Part shown: positions 11,108 to 18,940 of the stretch, piece after piece
How positions within the stretch are numbered: the first letter of the stretch is position 1
Layout: every line of letters begins with the position of its first letter
DNA from: an uncultured bacterium
GTDB taxonomy: Bacteria > Bacillota_I > Bacilli_A > RF39 > UBA660
Reading direction: 5' to 3'
DNA: 35,697 nt
NCBI GenBank assembly: GCA_949291575.1
Contig: CASEWH010000014.1
Coordinates: forward strand, 1 to 35,697
The notes under the pieces: model-generated
What the model saw: the letters and a program-made list of their open reading frames with translations, nothing else
The model's database searches: none
What the model was told of the DNA's origin: nothing
Translations under genes and position numbers: made by a program

Positions 11108-11136
11108 TTGACATCAATATAAAAGTATGGTATTAT
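11108..11136 (+). promoter_or_regulatory. Promoter of the plus-strand antisense RNA
   Basis: TTGACA (11108-11113), 17-bp spacer, TATTAT (11131-11136) preceded by TGG. It is followed by no ribosome site or ORF, only structured RNA. Confidence 0.8.
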
Positions 11137-11142
11137 GTATTT

Positions 11143-11250
11143 AGCAAAGAGATTTGCATAAAATAAAAATGAATACATCTATTAGAATAGATGCTTTCAT
11201 AGAATGGTTTATAAGCATCTAATTCCCAAAGGAATTAGATGTCTTATTTA
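11143..11250 (+). ncRNA. Putative antisense (antitoxin-like) RNA, about 108 nt
   Basis: The RNA runs from the promoter at 11108-11136 to a strong terminator. It starts with a small hairpin (GCAAA-GAGA-TTTGC), contains AGATGCTT (11189-11196) able to pair with AAGCATCT (11213-11220), and ends in an 11-bp perfect terminator stem (11216-11226 with 11231-11241) plus TCTTATTTA. The AAGCATCT half can pair either way, so the two folds are exclusive. It is complementary to the 3' part of the minus-strand peptide mRNA and just touches its stop codon. A second copy of AAGCATCTAATTCC at 11372-11386 means it can also pair with the 5' leader of that mRNA. The layout resembles txpA/RatA, bsrG/SR4 or par-type antitoxin RNAs. 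Confidence 0.7.
11160..11193 (-). terminator. Terminator of the peptide mRNA
   Basis: A 7-bp stem (11176-11182 with 11187-11193) is followed on the minus strand by a T-rich stretch down to 11160. It lies within the 5' half of the plus-strand RNA, so the two transcripts overlap completely over that RNA. Confidence 0.55.
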
Positions 11251-11401
11251 TATGAGTAGATAAATAAGTGAGATGATTATGAATAACAAGATAAGGATAA
11301 TAACAAAGTAAGCTATTTCTCTTTTTGTCATACACTCTTTCTCCTTTCTATAAGATTATAAATGTTATAGAAAGCATCTAATTCCAAATAAATGTATTCA
11401 T
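11169..11401. repeat. Imperfect inverted repeats bounding the peptide/antisense locus
   Basis: The left arm (11169-11198) reads ATGAATACATCTATTAG then AATAGATGCTTTC on plus. The right arm (11368-11401) reads ATGAATACATTTATTTGG then AATTAGATGCTTTC on minus. The arms contain the 5' parts of both transcripts, so each RNA carries a near-copy of the other's start. Confidence 0.7.
11248..11331 (-). CDS. 27-residue hydrophobic single-TM peptide, putative type I toxin
   Basis: ATG at 11331, stop at 11248-11250. The peptide opens M-T-K-R-E and then runs as one uninterrupted hydrophobic helix of about 20 residues made of I, L, V, F, Y, A with a single Ser, ending L-L-I. AAAGGAG lies about 10 nt before the ATG and an extended -10 promoter about 75 nt upstream, so it is a designed gene rather than chance. 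In the leader, CTTTCTATAA and TTATAGAAAG can form a 10-bp hairpin that buries the first half of the ribosome site. Small peptides of this shape are the toxins of type I systems, acting at the membrane. No known toxin family is recognised; a regulatory small membrane protein is the alternative. Confidence 0.7.
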   Translation of the reverse strand: MTKREIAYFVIILILLFIIISLIYLLI

Positions 11402-11405
11402 ATAT

Positions 11406-11414
11406 AGTATAGCA
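11406..11414 (-). promoter_or_regulatory. Extended -10 promoter of the peptide gene
   Basis: TGCTATACT on the minus strand, predicted start near 11399. The -35 region is poor and overlaps the hairpin at 11417-11443. Confidence 0.6.
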
Positions 11415-11416
11415 TT

Positions 11417-11443
11417 AAACCCGTATCTTTCTAGTACGGGTTT
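11417..11443. terminator. Candidate bidirectional terminator between pheT and the peptide locus
   Basis: A 9-bp GC-containing stem (11417-11425 with 11435-11443) is followed by TTTT on plus and TTT on minus. It lies about 110 nt beyond the pheT stop. The 11444-11552 stretch also holds a weaker hairpin followed by TTTTTT on minus (about 11477-11508). Nothing else was recognised there. Confidence 0.5.
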
Positions 11444-11552: not shown

Positions 11553-13976
11553 TTATTCAGTTCTAAGTTCTGCACCACATTTCTTGTTTAAGACCTTTAA
11601 GACATTATTAATTTTCTCATTTATTTGTTCAGATGTCATTGTAGTAAATTCATTAATCATTTTTACTTTTAAGGTGATTGATTTTTTATCACTAGGGATT
11701 TGATTACCTTTATATTCATCAACAAATTCTATTTCCTTAACCATTGATTTTATACTCTCTTCAATTTTATTCCATTCAACTTCTTTATCAACTAAAATAG
11801 ATAAATCCTTTTCAACCAACGGTAACTCTGGTAATCTCTCATATTTATTTGTTCTAGAATTATAAGCATCCAATTTATCAGAATTAATTTCAAAGATAGC
11901 TACATTAGTTCTTTTGATTTTTGAATCAGACATAACTTGTACTGACAATAACCCTAAAGATCCTATTATTTCATCATCTTTAGTTACATTTAAATATGCA
12001 TTAATATCAGCATAATTAGGTTTCTCTATTTTTTCCAATTTAATATTTTCCATATGACAGTACCTAGCCATATTTTCAATTACACCTTTTGCTTCATAAA
12101 ATATTTCTTTAGCATTTTTTCCTACTATACATCCAGTTAAATAATTACTTTGAACTGGTAATATTTCATCATTTGAAGATGGTCTATAATCTCCTCTTTG
12201 ATATACTTCAGCTTTTTCAAATAATTTAAATTCATTATAGTATCTTAAGTTTTTAGCGATTGCCTCTAACATTCCTGGTATTAAAGAACTTCTTAAATAT
12301 GCTAAAGACGGAGCTGGTGGTGTTGCTAATTTTAAAGATTTACTTATATCTATTTTAGCAGCATGAATGTATTTTTCATCAATCCATGGATAAGTATATA
12401 TTTCATAGAAACCACATCTACTTGATAAATATTCTTCTATTCTTCTATTAAGTAAAACATCATTTTGAATTATAGGATGTTCTATAGTTATATTTATTGG
12501 TTTAGCTTCAAAACTATCAAAAGAAAGTATTCTAGCAATATCTCCCATTACATCATCTTTAATTGTTACATCACCAGTTGATCTCCAAGTGGGAACTATT
12601 ACATCATATACTCCATTATTATATGATACTTTATATCCAAGAGATATTAAAATCTGTTTAATTTTATCTTTTGATATTTTCTTACCTAATCTTGTGTCTA
12701 AAAATTCCTCGCTTACTTTTATTTCATTCTTTTTAGTTCTGTTAGGATAAACATCACTATATTTAATTATTTTGCTATCTGGAAATATTTCTTTAATTAA
12801 CTCTAAGGCTAAACTTAATCCCTCATCTATCCTTTGTGTATCAATACCTTTCTCATATCTAATAGATGCATCTGTTTTTTCAGCGAATCTTTTGCCTGTT
12901 TTTCTAATTGCACTTGCAGAAAAATTTGCAACTTCTAATACAATTCCTTTTGTATCGGGTAAAATAGAGTCTTTCTTTCCACCCCTAATACCTGCTAAAG
13001 CCATGGCGTCTTTTTCATCACAAATTACTAGGTCATCTGTTGTAAGTTTAATTGTATTGTTATCAAGTAATAATAATTCTTCATTTTCTTTAGCATTTCT
13101 TACTATTATTTTTTCTCCATTAACATGGGTTCTATCAAAGGCATGAAGTGGTTGACCTACTGCCATCATTACATAATTTGTAATATCAACAATAGCATTT
13201 ATTGGTCTTTGTCCAGTTTTAGATAATAGTGATTTCATCCAGATTGGTGATTCTTTTTCATAAATACCATCAATTTCCACTGCTACGTATCTATTACACT
13301 TAGTTGTATCTTCTATTTCAACATTATACTTTGGTAAATTTTTATCTAATTCATATTTAGATAAATTCTTTAGAGGAACGTTGTAAATAGTAGACAATTC
13401 TCTTGCAATGCCATAGTGTCCCCATAAGTCTGGTCTGTTAGAAAGAGACTTATTATCTATTTCTAACACCGTATCATTCATGCCTATTAAATTAGCGATA
13501 GCATCTCCTGGTTTACAGTCAATACCTTTTAAATCAATTATTTCATTTTCACTATTAGCAGGAAAGAAATCATCTAAGTAAACTTCTGATGCTGCACAAA
13601 TCATTCCATAAGAAGTCTCCCCTCTCATTTTTGTTTCTTCTACTTTTACAGGTTCTCCTTCCCCATGCCAGACTACTTCTGCACCTGGTTTTGATACAAC
13701 TACATATTCACCATCATAAAGGTTAGAGCCTCCACAAACAATTTGGACAGGTTTATCTTCTCCAATATCAGTTATACATATTTTTAATCTATCTGCGTTG
13801 GGATGTTTTTTTACTTCTAAAATTTTTCCTACTACAATATTATGATATTTTAAAGAGACATCTTCTACTTTGTCTACTTCAACTGTTCTAAGTGTCATAT
13901 CGTAAGCTATTTGTTTATCAGTTAAATTTTTAGGTAAATCAACATACTTTTTTATTAAATTTAATGATACTCTCAT
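11553..13976 (-). CDS. pheT: Phenylalanine-tRNA ligase beta subunit
   Basis: The 807-residue beta subunit of the alpha2-beta2 synthetase. In order: an EMAP-type tRNA-binding domain with KKHPNADRLKIC (about 55-66), the B3/B4 editing domain with GQPLHAFDRTHV near residue 273, the B5 domain, a catalytic-like core and a C-terminal FDX-ACB anticodon-binding domain (about 710-807, ending in AELRTE). Length is normal. It starts 11 nt after pheS and must be read from the T-box promoter. A good SD (GGAGGAGAT) precedes the ATG. Confidence 0.97.
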   Translation of the reverse strand: MRVSLNLIKKYVDLPKNLTDKQIAYDMTLRTVEVDKVEDVSLKYHNIVVGKILEVKKHPNADRLKICITDIGEDKPVQIVCGGSNLYDGEYVVVSKPGAEVVWHGEGEPVKVEETKMRGETSYGMICAASEVYLDDFFPANSENEIIDLKGIDCKPGDAIANLIGMNDTVLEIDNKSLSNRPDLWGHYGIARELSTIYNVPLKNLSKYELDKNLPKYNVEIEDTTKCNRYVAVEIDGIYEKESPIWMKSLLSKTGQRPINAIVDITNYVMMAVGQPLHAFDRTHVNGEKIIVRNAKENEELLLLDNNTIKLTTDDLVICDEKDAMALAGIRGGKKDSILPDTKGIVLEVANFSASAIRKTGKRFAEKTDASIRYEKGIDTQRIDEGLSLALELIKEIFPDSKIIKYSDVYPNRTKKNEIKVSEEFLDTRLGKKISKDKIKQILISLGYKVSYNNGVYDVIVPTWRSTGDVTIKDDVMGDIARILSFDSFEAKPINITIEHPIIQNDVLLNRRIEEYLSSRCGFYEIYTYPWIDEKYIHAAKIDISKSLKLATPPAPSLAYLRSSLIPGMLEAIAKNLRYYNEFKLFEKAEVYQRGDYRPSSNDEILPVQSNYLTGCIVGKNAKEIFYEAKGVIENMARYCHMENIKLEKIEKPNYADINAYLNVTKDDEIIGSLGLLSVQVMSDSKIKRTNVAIFEINSDKLDAYNSRTNKYERLPELPLVEKDLSILVDKEVEWNKIEESIKSMVKEIEFVDEYKGNQIPSDKKSITLKVKMINEFTTMTSEQINEKINNVLKVLNKKCGAELRTE

Positions 13977-13987
13977 ATTATCTCCTC

Positions 13988-15025
13988 CTATTTAAATTGT
14001 TTTAGAAATCTTAAATCAGCACTGTGAAATAGTCTTACATCATCTACTCCATATCTCATCATTACTAATCTATCTAATCCTATATTAATATAGAATCCTG
14101 TCCATTCCTCTGGATTTAATCCTGCTGATTTTAATACGTTTGGATGAATTACACCTCCTGGCATAACTTCAATCCAACCATTATGGTTACATACTTTACA
14201 ACCTTTACCACCGCAAACTAAACATTCCATATCAATTTCATAACCTGGTTCTGTGAATGGGAAGAATCCTTCTCTCATTCTTGTATTAATTTTTCTACCA
14301 AAAACTTTTTCTAAAATAGTTTGAATAAGAACCATTCCTGATGAAAATGAAATATCTTTATCAACAATTAATGCTTCATACTGAAAGAAAGCTCTTTCAT
14401 GTCTTGCATCTGTTGTTTCATTTCTATATGCTCCTCCTGGATATACAAATCTTGCTGGTGCTCCGTGTTTTTGTAAATATCTAACAGAGCCGCCAGTTAA
14501 ATGTGGTCTTAAACATAATCTTTCGGCTCCTTCTTTGCCTTCAGTTCCTTCAAGCCAATATGTATCCATAGATTGACGAGCTGGATGGTCTTTAGCAAAG
14601 TTTAGGTTATCAAATGCATATTTTTCACTACTAATATCATCTTCACTATAAACTTCAAAACCTAGTGATAAGAAAGCATCATTTAAATCATTTCTCATCT
14701 GTGTTATAGGATGAAGTGCCCCTTCATTTACTTTTTTTCCTGGTAAAGTCAAATCAATAGGTTCTTCCAATACACTCAAAGAAGCGATAAGCTCTTCTTC
14801 TTTAAGATTCAATTTTTCTACAAAAGATGTTTTTATTTCAGTAGTTAGCATACCTATTGATTTTTTTTCATCTGATGACAAATCGCTCATTGATTTTAAA
14901 ACCTTTGATAATTCACTTTTCTTACCGGTTAAGTCTTTTCTAACTTGTTCAAGCTCAGTAATGTTCTTTACGTTTTTAATTTTTTCTAAACCTCTAGTTT
15001 TAATTTCTTCTAATCTTTCTTTCAT
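13988..15025 (-). CDS. pheS: Phenylalanine-tRNA ligase alpha subunit
   Basis: The 345-residue catalytic subunit charges tRNA-Phe. An N-terminal coiled coil (about 1-85) binds tRNA. Class II motif 2 is seen at YRNETTDARHERAFFQYE and motif 3 at GLDRLVMMRYGVDDVR near the C-terminus. A Cys-rich stretch MECLVCGGKGCKVCNHNG (about 266-283) resembles the Cys cluster found in many bacterial alpha subunits. The ribosome site is GAGAGGAT. It lies directly after a T-box leader, so expression rises when uncharged tRNA-Phe accumulates. Confidence 0.97.
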   Translation of the reverse strand: MKERLEEIKTRGLEKIKNVKNITELEQVRKDLTGKKSELSKVLKSMSDLSSDEKKSIGMLTTEIKTSFVEKLNLKEEELIASLSVLEEPIDLTLPGKKVNEGALHPITQMRNDLNDAFLSLGFEVYSEDDISSEKYAFDNLNFAKDHPARQSMDTYWLEGTEGKEGAERLCLRPHLTGGSVRYLQKHGAPARFVYPGGAYRNETTDARHERAFFQYEALIVDKDISFSSGMVLIQTILEKVFGRKINTRMREGFFPFTEPGYEIDMECLVCGGKGCKVCNHNGWIEVMPGGVIHPNVLKSAGLNPEEWTGFYINIGLDRLVMMRYGVDDVRLFHSADLRFLKQFK

Positions 15026-15129: not shown

Positions 15130-15355
15130 ATAAATTAAAACGAGCAGTCCATCCATAAAGGACGAATTGCTCGTGGTACCACCTTTTTTTATAGTATTAC
15201 TACTACCTCATTATAGATTAACGCTCATACACGATTTGACTCCATCATTGAAATTCATTAAATTCCCTTATCTATTGTGGCTCTCAGTCGCTGACCACAT
15301 TTCCTTTTAGAGTTTGAAATTAACTACTTGGATGACTTCTTCATCAACAAAATTC
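15130..15355 (-). promoter_or_regulatory. T-box riboswitch (Phe) of pheST
   Basis: The leader runs from the start near 15355. Stem I has an AAGTAG strand opposite GAATTTCAATG; the specifier is TTC (15250-15252 on the complement), a Phe codon. The conserved GGTGGTACCACG (about 15172-15184) forms the antiterminator with its tRNA-binding bulge. The competing terminator is the CGAGCA...TGCTCG stem (15141-15182) followed by TTTTAATTT. About 100 nt separate the terminator from pheS and contain only the ribosome site and a doubtful mini-ORF. Confidence 0.9.
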
Positions 15356-15414: not shown

Positions 15415-16002
15415 TTATTTTAATTCTTTTTGAACATCTCTTTTTGACATATCAGAATATGGTTTAATGTCTTCTTCATCACGGTCATAACCATAAACAC
15501 CATACTTATCGGCCATGCCATATATTAATGTTTCATGAGAACAATGTATATCATTATTTTTAGACATAACATCTAAAATATCACACACTACTTGTTCTTT
15601 AGGTAATCCTAACATTTTATAATGTTCATTATCAAAGTCACTTAAATCCCAATAACTTTTATCTGTAATAAATTTACTTTGATATAGTTTTCTTTCATGG
15701 AAAAATAAAGTGGCAATAGTTGCAATATGCTTAGTGCCAGCATCTTCTTTATTAAAGCCTGCCCATTCTAAATCATCTAAAAGTCTTTGTCTAATACTTG
15801 GTTTTTGTACATGATATAAATAATTTTTAGCTTCACGATAATCATATCTTGAAGAAAGCTCTTCCTTAGGATATTTATCTTCCATATACTCTACCCAAGA
15901 TTTAACCTTATTATACTCTTCTGCTTTTTTATAAACTTCTTTGCAGGAAGCACCAACTACTTCTTTTCTAAGCTCTGCAAATATTTTTTTATCATACATC
16001 AT
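15415..16002 (-). CDS. Hypothetical protein, 195 residues
   Basis: A soluble, highly charged protein with many Lys, Glu, Asp and Tyr. The centre has KHIATIATLFFHERK (about 91-105) and the C-terminal half holds HCSHETLIYGMADKYGVYGYDRDEED. No membrane segment or signal peptide. AAAGGGGG lies about 9 nt before the first of two consecutive ATG codons, and an ideal promoter lies just upstream, so it is a real, separately transcribed gene. I do not recognise the family. It is followed at once by the pheST promoter without an evident terminator, so read-through into the T-box is possible. Confidence 0.75.
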   Translation of the reverse strand: MMYDKKIFAELRKEVVGASCKEVYKKAEEYNKVKSWVEYMEDKYPKEELSSRYDYREAKNYLYHVQKPSIRQRLLDDLEWAGFNKEDAGTKHIATIATLFFHERKLYQSKFITDKSYWDLSDFDNEHYKMLGLPKEQVVCDILDVMSKNNDIHCSHETLIYGMADKYGVYGYDRDEEDIKPYSDMSKRDVQKELK

Positions 16003-16081: not shown

Positions 16082-16111
16082 TTGACAATTACCTAGAAAA
16101 TATGATACTAT
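16082..16111 (+). promoter_or_regulatory. Promoter of the orphan antitoxin-like RNA
   Basis: TTGACA (16082-16087), 18-bp spacer, TACTAT (16106-16111) preceded by TGA. The surrounding bases GATACTTTGACA and TATGTATTTAGC also match the copy at 11101-11145. Confidence 0.7.
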
Positions 16112-16117
16112 GTATTT

Positions 16118-16200
16118 AGCAAAGAGATTTGTAATAAGAATAGATGCTTTCAAAAGTGATTTGGTTTGCATCTAATTCAAGAATTAGATGTCTTATTTAT
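16118..16200 (+). ncRNA. Second copy of the antitoxin-like RNA, without a toxin ORF
   Basis: About 83 nt. It shares with the RNA at 11143-11250 the start GTATTTAGCAAAGAGATTTG, the block AATAGATGCTTTCA, and the terminator arms GCATCTAATTC / GAATTAGATG followed by TCTTATTTAT. The internal spacer differs. On the opposite strand no ATG-initiated peptide exists between the terminator and the cse60-like gene. The RNA half, including its promoter, has been kept while the peptide half is gone. It may be an orphan antitoxin acting in trans on the first locus or a stand-alone sRNA. Confidence 0.65.
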
Positions 16201-16230
16201 TGTTAAATAGGGGAGATAATAATAGGAGGA

Positions 16231-16262
16231 AGAAAAATAACTTAGTATGTTATTTTTCTTTT
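16231..16262. terminator. Bidirectional terminator after the cse60-like gene
   Basis: An 11-bp stem (16231-16241 with 16249-16259, 7-nt loop) with A-rich left arm and T-rich right arm. It lies 7 nt past the stop at 16269 and also faces any plus-strand read-through of the orphan RNA. Confidence 0.7.
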
Positions 16263-16268
16263 GTCTTT

Positions 16269-16439
16269 TTAATAGTAAATTATCATAGCAGAAAAACAAT
16301 ATATCTGCTCTTCTCCACTAGGAAAAGAACTAACGGCATACTTAATATCTACAACTTCTCCATCTAAATCGCCTAAAAACTCATTCATTGCTTTTTGTAA
16401 ATCACTCTCATCTTCATAGTCGAATATTTTTACTTTCAT
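16269..16439 (-). CDS. Cse60-like small protein (sporulation-associated family)
   Basis: A 56-residue ORF. It reads MKVKIFDYEDESDLQKAMN at the start, has IDIKYAVSSF in the middle and ends EQIYCFSAMIIYY. The combination of a VKxFD start, an N-terminal helix, a DIKY strand and the terminal EQIYCFSAMIIY block is the pattern of the small Cse60 proteins of Bacillota, first noted in sporulating Bacillus. The biochemical role is unknown. AAAGG lies about 10 nt before the ATG. A candidate promoter (TTGTGG, 16 bp, TATAGT on minus) overlaps the hairpin that ends leuS. Its presence does not prove sporulation, since non-spore formers also carry relatives. Confidence 0.72.
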   Translation of the reverse strand: MKVKIFDYEDESDLQKAMNEFLGDLDGEVVDIKYAVSSFPSGEEQIYCFSAMIIYY

Positions 16440-16537: not shown

Positions 16538-18940
16538 CTATTTTACAACTATATTTACTATTTTACCTTTGATAACTATTATCTTAACAATTTCTTTACC
16601 TTCAGTGAATCTCTTTACATTTTCTTGTTCTAAAGCTTTTTCTTTTACTACTTCTTCACTATCATTAACATTTATTGTTATAGTAGCTCGTACTTTACCA
16701 TTTACTTGAACTGCTATTTCTTTTTCTGTTTCTACAAGTTTAGACTCATCATATGTAGGCCATTTTTCATAGCATAATGGTTCATATCCTAAAGATTCAT
16801 TTAACTCTTCTGTAATATGAGGAGCGACTGGATTTAATAGTGTTAAAAGCAAATGATAATCTTCTTTAGTTATACTATCTAAATCATCATAGGCATTAGT
16901 TAATATCATTAATGAAGATATATAAGTGTTATAACTCATCCTTGAAAGTGATGAATCTAAGTCTTTTACTGTCTTATTTTGTAAAACAACTAAACTATCA
17001 GTAAAGCCAGTTTTATCATTAACTTTAGACTTTAGACGTTCTACTTTATCTAAGAATCTCTTACATCCTCTTAGGGAATCTGTACTCCATGGTACATCTT
17101 GAGTATAGTCACCCATAAACATTTCATAAGTTCTAAGAGTATCAGCACCATATTCATTAACTATATCATCAGGATTTATTACATTACCTTTACTCTTACT
17201 CATCTTTTGATTATCTGGTCCTAAAACCATACCATGACTAACACGGACATCAATCATTTCTTTAGATGGAACTAGTCCAATATTATATAAGAACTGTACC
17301 CAGAATCTTGCATATAGTAAATGTCTTGCTGTATGTTCCATACCTCCATTGTACCAATTTACTTTCTGCCAATATTTCATAGCATCCATAGAAGCAAATT
17401 CTTTGTCATTATCTGCATCCATAAATCTTAAGAAATACCAAGATGAACCTGCCCAGTTAGGCATAGTATCAGTCTCACGTCTTGCAGGACCACCACAGCA
17501 TGGACAAGTTGTATTAACCCAGTCTGTTATTTTTGCAAGAGGTGATTCTCCTGTATCTGTTGGTTCATATTCTGCAACATCTGGAAGTAATAGCGGTAGG
17601 TCTTTCTCATCCATAGGTTGCCATCCACATTTTTCACAGTATATCATTGGTATTGGTTCTCCCCAGAATCTTTGTCTTGAGAAAATCCAGTCTTGTAAAC
17701 GATAGTTAGTTTTTTCTCTTCCTAAATTGTTTTCTTTTAAGTACTCTAACATTCTATTTATAGAGTCTTTCTTATTGGTATAACCATTTAAGAAGTCTGA
17801 GTTAATCATTTTACCATCACCAGTATAGGCTTCTTTAGAAATATCTCCCCCTTCAATTACTTCGATGATAGGAATATTATATTTCTTAGCAAAGTCATAA
17901 TCTCTTTGGTCATGTGCAGGAACTGCCATAATTGCACCTGTTCCATAACCCATCATAACATAGTCAGAGATAAAGACGTCAACAGTCTTACCACTTACAG
18001 GATTCTTTACAGTTATACCTTCTAATTTTACACCGGTTTTATCTTTGTTTACTTCTACTCTTTCAAAAGCACTTTTACTTTTAGCATACTCTTGATACTT
18101 TCTTACTTCATCCATATTAGTAATTATATCTTTTAGTTTTTCTAATATTGGATGTTCTGGTGCCACTACCATGAAAGTTACACCAAATAATGTATCACAT
18201 CTTGTAGTATAGACAGTTAATTTATCATTAGTCTCTTCAATAGTAAAATCTATCTCTGCACCTGTTGACTTACCTATCCAGTTTATTTGTCCTAGTTTTA
18301 CACGTTCTGCAAAGTTTGTATCATCTAAACCTTTAAGTAAATCTTCGGCATAATCACTCATTCTTAACATCCATTGTTCTTTTTCTTTTTGAACAACTTT
18401 ACTACCACATCTCTCACATACACCACCAGCGGCATCTTCATTTGACAATACACTTTTACAAGTTGGACACCAATTTACATCTTTCTTATCTTTATAGGCC
18501 ATACCATGTTTGTAAAATTGTAAGAACTGCCACTGTGTCCATTTATAGTATTCTGGGTCTGTTGTTGAAAATTCTCTATCCCAGTCAAATGAGAATCCAA
18601 GTGACATCATTTGTCCTTTAAAGGTTTTTATATTTTCTTTAACAGCATCTTTTGGATGAATATGATTTTTAATAGCATATTGTTCTGCAGGTGCACCAAA
18701 GGCATCCCACCCCATTGGGAATAAAACGTTATATCCTTGCATACGTTTTACTCTTGCAAGTACATCTTGAGCAGTATAACTTCTAACATGACCTACATGT
18801 AATCCTGCTCCCGATGGATAAGGAAACTCTACTAAAATATAGTATGGTTCTTTATCTTTTTCTCCTGTTACAGCTTTAAAGCACTTATTATTTAGCCAAT
18901 AATCTTGCCATTTCTTTTCTATATCATTAATTTTTTCCAT
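16538..18940 (-). CDS. leuS: Leucine-tRNA ligase
   Basis: The 800-residue class I synthetase charges tRNA-Leu. The HIGH signature appears as HVGH (48-51) after YPSGAGL, a zinc-binding CPTC...CERC pair lies near residues 155-180, the CP1 editing domain spans about 220-410 (with TTRCDTLFG), a second Cys cluster follows near 430-480, and KMSKS is near residue 578. The C-terminal anticodon and stem-contact domains are complete. It overlaps the upstream membrane-protein gene by 14 nt and shares its T-box leader, so both are induced by leucine limitation. Length is typical of bacterial LeuRS. Confidence 0.97.
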   Translation of the reverse strand: MEKINDIEKKWQDYWLNNKCFKAVTGEKDKEPYYILVEFPYPSGAGLHVGHVRSYTAQDVLARVKRMQGYNVLFPMGWDAFGAPAEQYAIKNHIHPKDAVKENIKTFKGQMMSLGFSFDWDREFSTTDPEYYKWTQWQFLQFYKHGMAYKDKKDVNWCPTCKSVLSNEDAAGGVCERCGSKVVQKEKEQWMLRMSDYAEDLLKGLDDTNFAERVKLGQINWIGKSTGAEIDFTIEETNDKLTVYTTRCDTLFGVTFMVVAPEHPILEKLKDIITNMDEVRKYQEYAKSKSAFERVEVNKDKTGVKLEGITVKNPVSGKTVDVFISDYVMMGYGTGAIMAVPAHDQRDYDFAKKYNIPIIEVIEGGDISKEAYTGDGKMINSDFLNGYTNKKDSINRMLEYLKENNLGREKTNYRLQDWIFSRQRFWGEPIPMIYCEKCGWQPMDEKDLPLLLPDVAEYEPTDTGESPLAKITDWVNTTCPCCGGPARRETDTMPNWAGSSWYFLRFMDADNDKEFASMDAMKYWQKVNWYNGGMEHTARHLLYARFWVQFLYNIGLVPSKEMIDVRVSHGMVLGPDNQKMSKSKGNVINPDDIVNEYGADTLRTYEMFMGDYTQDVPWSTDSLRGCKRFLDKVERLKSKVNDKTGFTDSLVVLQNKTVKDLDSSLSRMSYNTYISSLMILTNAYDDLDSITKEDYHLLLTLLNPVAPHITEELNESLGYEPLCYEKWPTYDESKLVETEKEIAVQVNGKVRATITINVNDSEEVVKEKALEQENVKRFTEGKEIVKIIVIKGKIVNIVVK

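What the first reader, a model, noticed from the sequence alone, without database searches (positions are those of the whole stretch)
16082..16200. Orphan second copy of the antitoxin-like RNA
Promoter, 5' hairpin, AGATGCTTTCA block and terminator arms of the RNA at 11143-11250 recur here, but the opposite strand has lost the peptide ORF; a cse60-like gene lies where its promoter would be. Selective retention of the RNA half suggests cross-silencing in trans (an anti-addiction module) or a general sRNA role.
Basis: partly seen in the sequence, partly recalled or inferred. Interest (0 to 1): 0.62.

Follow-up and report, generated by a model that had tools for sequence, protein, structure and literature searches.

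The report
Decayed toxin locus, antitoxin RNA retained
Next to a small sporulation-type gene sits the shared remnant of a two-part toxin/antitoxin module whose toxin gene is dead and whose antitoxin RNA is still there but damaged; on its own it is an ordinary fossil, but it belongs to a large, apparently undescribed family of RNA-controlled toxin modules with about 16-27 copies per genome in three uncultured gut Bacilli.

Summary
Window 16082-16275 is a second copy of the RNA at 11143-11250 (alignment score 207, shuffles mean 76.5, max 121). Its opposite strand carries a recognisable but dead toxin gene: start codon, leader and promoter deleted at a TTTGTC repeat, in-frame stop at about codon 9, Spore_Cse60 gene abutting. 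The same allele, with the same lesions, sits between femAB and cse60 in 9 other Ca. Onthousia species; at that position other species have an intact module or none. A model of the RNA finds 16 copies in this genome (14 with an intact 22-31 aa hydrophobic toxin), 27 and 24 in two relatives, and members in 212 of 288 genomes of the order; no Rfam, Pfam or NCBIfam family covers it. So it is not a plain repeat, but selective retention of the RNA is not supported: the RNA lost 22 nt including one arm of its conserved hairpin, its predicted fold is weak, it is the weakest convincing family member here, and it is no better conserved than the dead toxin. It keeps an 11-nt match to toxin 1's leader, but in most orphan-bearing relatives no such target was found. 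Best reading: a relic of a par-like type I module, probably still transcribed, its transcript possibly now ending in the toxin remnant.

The parts
16082..16111 (+). promoter of the orphan RNA: TTGACA, 18 nt, TACTAT with TG
   Evidence: -35 invariant in 8 orphan alleles (changed in G010); hexamers vary at 1/12 columns, spacer at 10/18, Fisher p 0.018; much of the spacer variation is one two-haplotype split
16119..16132 (+). 5' hairpin GCAAA-GAGA-TTTGT (family 5' hairpin, last pair weakened in the window copy)
16142..16152 (+). AGATGCTTTCA block; in the orphan it has lost its upstream pairing arm (22-nt deletion)
   Evidence: the intact hairpin has 7 of 9 pairs with compensatory changes
16168..16178 (+). 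GCATCTAATTC, 11 nt perfectly complementary to the leader of toxin 1 mRNA; also 5' arm of terminator 1
   Evidence: target GAATTAGATGCTTTC at 11370-11384 minus
16168..16191 (+). terminator-1 stem, in predicted competition with 16138-16147 pairing to 16168-16178
   Evidence: competing hairpin -11.8 kcal/mol, terminator hairpin -8.6
16196..16265 (-). dead toxin gene remnant: no start codon, in-frame stop at about codon 9
16230..16260 (+). 12-bp perfect palindrome within the remnant, then TTGTCTTTTT: possible new terminator of the orphan RNA
   Evidence: 1 of 3000 shuffles reaches a 12-bp stem; toxin 1 has none above 6; stem kept in orphan alleles with one A-to-G change that still pairs
16260..16265 (.). 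TTTGTC, inferred junction of the deletion that removed the toxin start, leader and promoter
   Evidence: TTTGTC occurs at toxin 1's start and before cse60 in G001
16269..16439 (-). cse60-like gene (56 aa)
   Evidence: PF10957, E 6.2e-22
15415..16002 (-). ORF195, unknown, divergent from the orphan promoter; own promoter 16063-16035 (12/12)
11108..11250 (+). intact antitoxin RNA 1 with its promoter
   Evidence: (fold z -6.4)
11248..11331 (-). toxin 1, MTKREIAYFVIILILLFIIISLIYLLI
11370..11384 (-). target site GAATTAGATGCTTTC in the toxin 1 leader

Best explanation
The orphan is the fossil of a par-like type I toxin-antitoxin module in the femAB-cse60 intergenic spot. Most likely history (inferred): a deletion between TTTGTC repeats removed the toxin's start codon, leader and promoter and brought cse60 next to it; point and small indel changes killed the rest; a 22-nt deletion removed one arm of the antitoxin's recognition hairpin. 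The allele arose once (shared lesions) and spread among species by inheritance and recombination. The RNA is probably still made from its conserved promoter, but it is a damaged antitoxin with no cognate toxin. Its freed AGATGC box is predicted to pair with the first terminator's 5' arm, so transcripts may run on to the palindrome in the toxin remnant. What it may still do is mark transcript ends between femAB and cse60. Shown: lesions, synteny, family, copy numbers. Predicted only: folds and termination. Inferred: transcription and order of events.
For: Dead toxin and shared lesions in 10 species. Intact modules at the same position in relatives, including the same gene order as the window in G001 (femAB-TA-pheT-pheS-ORF195-TA-cse60). 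RNA fold z -1.6 against -6.4 for RNA 1; weakest convincing family member in the genome, 42 bits against 53-103. RNA and dead remnant about equally conserved. Further toxin loss is common: an apparent mobile-element insertion inside the remnant in G010 and G029, truncated modules at the locus in G002 and G028, and toxin-less relics among the 67 family RNAs of three genomes, about 7 by an ORF scan. The tree of femAB does not group orphan carriers, at least 4 changes forced.
Against: Promoter hexamers vary less than the spacer, and RNA and remnant are both more conserved than 4-fold sites of femAB in most pairs, so something in the segment may be constrained. Five species without any module at this spot have femAB (or murJ) and cse60 adjacent or close, so a terminator role is dispensable.
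Confidence: 0.6

Rival explanations
1. Cross-silencing: the orphan RNA is kept because it represses toxin 1 (or relatives arriving on mobile DNA) in trans, an anti-addiction RNA.
For: 11-nt perfect complement to the toxin 1 leader, against 6-8 nt for this RNA with the other toxin leaders of the genome; second best duplex for toxin 1 after its own antitoxin (-30.7 against -35.7 kcal/mol; 17 of 1000 shuffles as good).
Against: In G007, G013, G021, G029 and G031 the related second-site toxin leader lacks the target (8-nt chance match); in G012 and G014 no toxin-1-type toxin was found with the searches used. No match to the module in the plasmid, phage or viral-contig collections searched. The recognition hairpin is broken. 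An accessibility-weighted score gave no signal even for the true pair, so it could not decide.
Confidence: 0.15
2. New RNA: run-on transcription into the toxin remnant makes an RNA of about 155 nt ending at the cse60 stop codon, which acts on the 3' end of cse60 mRNA or simply insulates the convergent genes.
For: Predicted competition of the first terminator, palindrome with a U-rich tail on the + strand only, remnant as conserved as the RNA; in nine orphan species femAB ends 15-18 nt before the RNA promoter.
Against: Overlap with the cse60 reading frame is at most a few nt. The remnant is interrupted by an insertion in G010 and G029. Termination is only predicted; few independent changes in the palindrome.
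Confidence: 0.13
3. General sRNA role on unrelated mRNAs.
For: AGATGC block invariant among orphan alleles.
Against: No more conserved than the dead toxin; no target search beyond toxin leaders was made.
Confidence: 0.05
4. Chance similarity or a plain repeat.
For: The region is A+T-rich and promoter-like sites occur at the chance rate.
Against: Alignment and model scores far above shuffles; 14 of 16 copies have a convergent toxin.
Confidence: 0.01

Closest known systems
par/Fst type I modules (parpAD1; review PMC7472228)
   Same: Convergent short toxin mRNA and antitoxin RNA, short direct repeats giving RNA-RNA complementarity, hairpin over the toxin ribosome site, shared 3' stem; parEF0409 also has no terminator between the upstream gene and its antitoxin (PMC7472228).
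   Different: Toxins lack the tryptophan, PXXXG motif and charged C-terminus of Fst/Ldr; no Pfam or NCBIfam match; 16-27 copies per genome; the orphan has no toxin.
Inactivated hok/sok loci of E. coli K-12
   Same: Multi-copy chromosomal type I family with copies killed by insertion, point mutation or rearrangement (PMC2654758).
   Different: Here the lesion removes the toxin promoter and start but leaves the antitoxin promoter; one dead allele is shared by ten species.
Chromosomal anti-addiction module (ccd of Erwinia chrysanthemi, described in PMC2654758)
   Same: A chromosomal antitoxin that could act against a related toxin elsewhere.
   Different: That one is a protein antitoxin in an intact module tested by experiment; here only an 11-nt match, and the target is missing in most relatives.

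Membership tests
par/Fst type I module (tested on the intact partner, 11108-11433) | convergent promoters | tested here: met
   + 11108-11136 (11/12), - 11433-11406 (9/12 with TG); consensus matches only
par/Fst type I module (tested on the intact partner, 11108-11433) | direct repeats giving complementarity at the toxin leader | tested here: met
   AAGCATCTAATTCC, 14 nt
par/Fst type I module (tested on the intact partner, 11108-11433) | bidirectional terminator | tested here: inconclusive
   found on + (11215-11242), not on -
par/Fst type I module (tested on the intact partner, 11108-11433) | leader hairpin over the Shine-Dalgarno | tested here: met
   predicted 10-bp stem reaching AAAG of AAAGGAG; whole fold no better than shuffles (z -0.45)
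par/Fst type I module (tested on the intact partner, 11108-11433) | Fst/Ldr toxin signature (W, PXXXG, charged C-terminus) | tested here: not met
   signature from PMC7472228
functional type I module (tested on the orphan) | intact toxin gene | tested here: not met
functional type I module (tested on the orphan) | intact antitoxin recognition hairpin | tested here: not met
anti-addiction antitoxin | complementarity to a toxin mRNA in the same cell | tested here: inconclusive
   11 nt in G000, 10 in G010, 8-9 in G015; 8-nt chance level in five other carriers
anti-addiction antitoxin | neutralises the toxin in trans | not testable with these tools
   needs an assay
known RNA family | match in Rfam 15 | tested here: not met
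   E up to 10, window; gathering, ten loci

The most novel reading that the evidence does not exclude
The orphan allele is a 'cure' allele: because it still carries a weak antitoxin against toxin-1-type modules, cells that acquire it by recombination at the femAB-cse60 spot survive losing the intact module, so it spreads between species by disarming a selfish locus.
Probability: 0.1. Interest if true: 0.7.

Novelty: new member of a known kind. Interest (0 to 1): 0.42.

Why it matters
The orphan itself shows how a type I module dies: toxin half cut off by a short-repeat deletion, RNA half left behind damaged, one dead allele found across species. The wider point is the family around it: many RNA-controlled membrane-peptide modules per small genome, across most sampled genera of one uncultured group, with no entry in the RNA and protein libraries searched. 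Natural series of intact, damaged and empty alleles at one spot make it testable whether antitoxin RNAs outlive toxins because they are needed or only because they decay later.

Tried and rejected
Accessibility-weighted duplex scoring gave no signal even for the cognate pair, so it was dropped as a test; whole-length duplex energies allow unrealistic loops and are only supportive. Searches for the module in plasmids, phages and viral contigs found nothing; the viral scan was an exact pattern only. A new peptide encoded by the remnant was rejected: a 4-nt indel and a 1-nt indel break its frames between species. No paper on toxin-antitoxin systems in Onthousia was found in the library. The toxin ORF scan uses simple hydrophobicity and ribosome-site rules and its 'none' calls were not all inspected by eye.

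Full report
What is there. Window 16082-16275 is a real second copy of the RNA at 11143-11250 (score 207; shuffles mean 76.5, max 121). On the minus strand the toxin gene is still recognisable at 16196-16265 (score 65; shuffles mean 31, max 56) but dead: start codon, ribosome site, leader and promoter are gone and a stop lies at about codon 9. The junction is TTTGTC, a hexamer found both at toxin 1's start and just before cse60 in G001, so a short-repeat deletion is the likely origin (inferred). The abutting gene is Spore_Cse60.

Locus across species. The window lies in a 1.22-Mb MAG; close relatives in the named collection are Candidatus Onthousia MAGs. Of the genomes whose femAB-cse60 or leuS flank could be read, ten including the window carry the same orphan allele, others an intact module, others none. 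G001 has the window's gene order with an intact module where the window has the orphan. A tree of femAB does not group the carriers (at least 4 changes forced), while the lesions are shared; one origin and spread by inheritance and recombination is the simplest account (inferred).

The family. A covariance model from 24 intact antitoxins (one helix, 7 of 9 pairs with compensatory changes) finds 16 members in this genome, 27 and 24 in G013 and G015, and matches in 212 of 288 genomes of the order, 79 of 102 genera; the listed genomes are all of one family. In a class-wide draw only one of 15 positive genomes lay outside that family. Rfam has no match at the tested thresholds; the toxins tested have no Pfam or NCBIfam family. 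By ORF scan 14 of the 16 have an intact convergent hydrophobic toxin; the other two are the orphan and C42:2764-2886. E-values of this model are rough.

Is the RNA half selectively kept? The orphan lacks 22 nt including the 5' arm of the conserved hairpin, folds at z -1.6 against -6.4, and scores 42 bits against 53-103 for the others. Among 8 species the RNA regions other than the promoter and the dead remnant differ at about 0.01-0.04 per site; both are below 4-fold sites in most comparisons. Promoter hexamers vary less than their spacer (p 0.018), though much of that is one two-haplotype split. So the segment may be constrained, but not the RNA more than the dead gene.

Cross-silencing. The orphan keeps GCATCTAATTC, complementary over 11 nt to toxin 1's leader, and makes the second-best duplex with it. 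In five other carriers the related leader lacks the target, in G010 and G015 the match is 8-10 nt, and in G012 and G014 I found no such toxin by the DNA and pattern searches used. Chemically possible in this genome, not a shared reason for retention.

Predicted new ending. The AGATGC block, freed by the deletion, is predicted to pair with the first terminator's 5' arm (-11.8 against -8.6 kcal/mol) before the terminator is complete; a 12-bp palindrome with a U-rich tail in the toxin remnant could end the transcript (1 of 3000 shuffles reaches such a stem). This is prediction only.

Verdict. A decayed par-like type I module with a damaged antitoxin RNA, probably still transcribed: a new member of a known kind. 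The larger novelty is the family around it.

Noticed in passing
whole genome; e.g. L201, L230-L242: Large multi-copy type I toxin-antitoxin family (16-27 RNAs per genome in three genomes, several toxin sequence groups) across most sampled genera of the order, without Rfam, Pfam or NCBIfam entry.
   Followed up: partly
window 11553-15025: PheST here is a divergent second PheRS: the other PheS at G000:C107 is 36% identical; 96-97% copies only in G001, G024, G025 and G028, placed between two module copies at the femAB-cse60 spot, with a T-box at 15155-15350.
   Followed up: partly
window 16538-18940: LeuS beside the locus occurs in the genus in a near-identical form (about 88-99%) and in forms near 46-53% identity; in several of the latter cse60 is nearly unchanged.
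   Followed up: no
G000:C42:2764-2886 (L242, L306): Second toxin-less family RNA, followed on the same strand by a 72-aa protein with a CTGC motif resembling a heavy-metal-associated domain; not searched in Pfam.
   Followed up: partly
L069, L096, L097: Apparent mobile-element insertion inside the toxin remnant in G010 and G029; ends read as inverted repeats, element not identified.
   Followed up: no
L021-L025 (second-site modules): In five relatives the second-site toxin leader lacks the sequence its own antitoxin would match; in G029 the toxin start codon is ATA.
   Followed up: partly
L285, L286, L290, L291, L104, L109: Several family members lie close to tRNA genes.
   Followed up: no
L066, L070, L089, L094, L095: A 182-aa NUDIX-like gene (name from memory) lies between module and cse60 in some species; in G025 it is split in two frames.
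   Followed up: no
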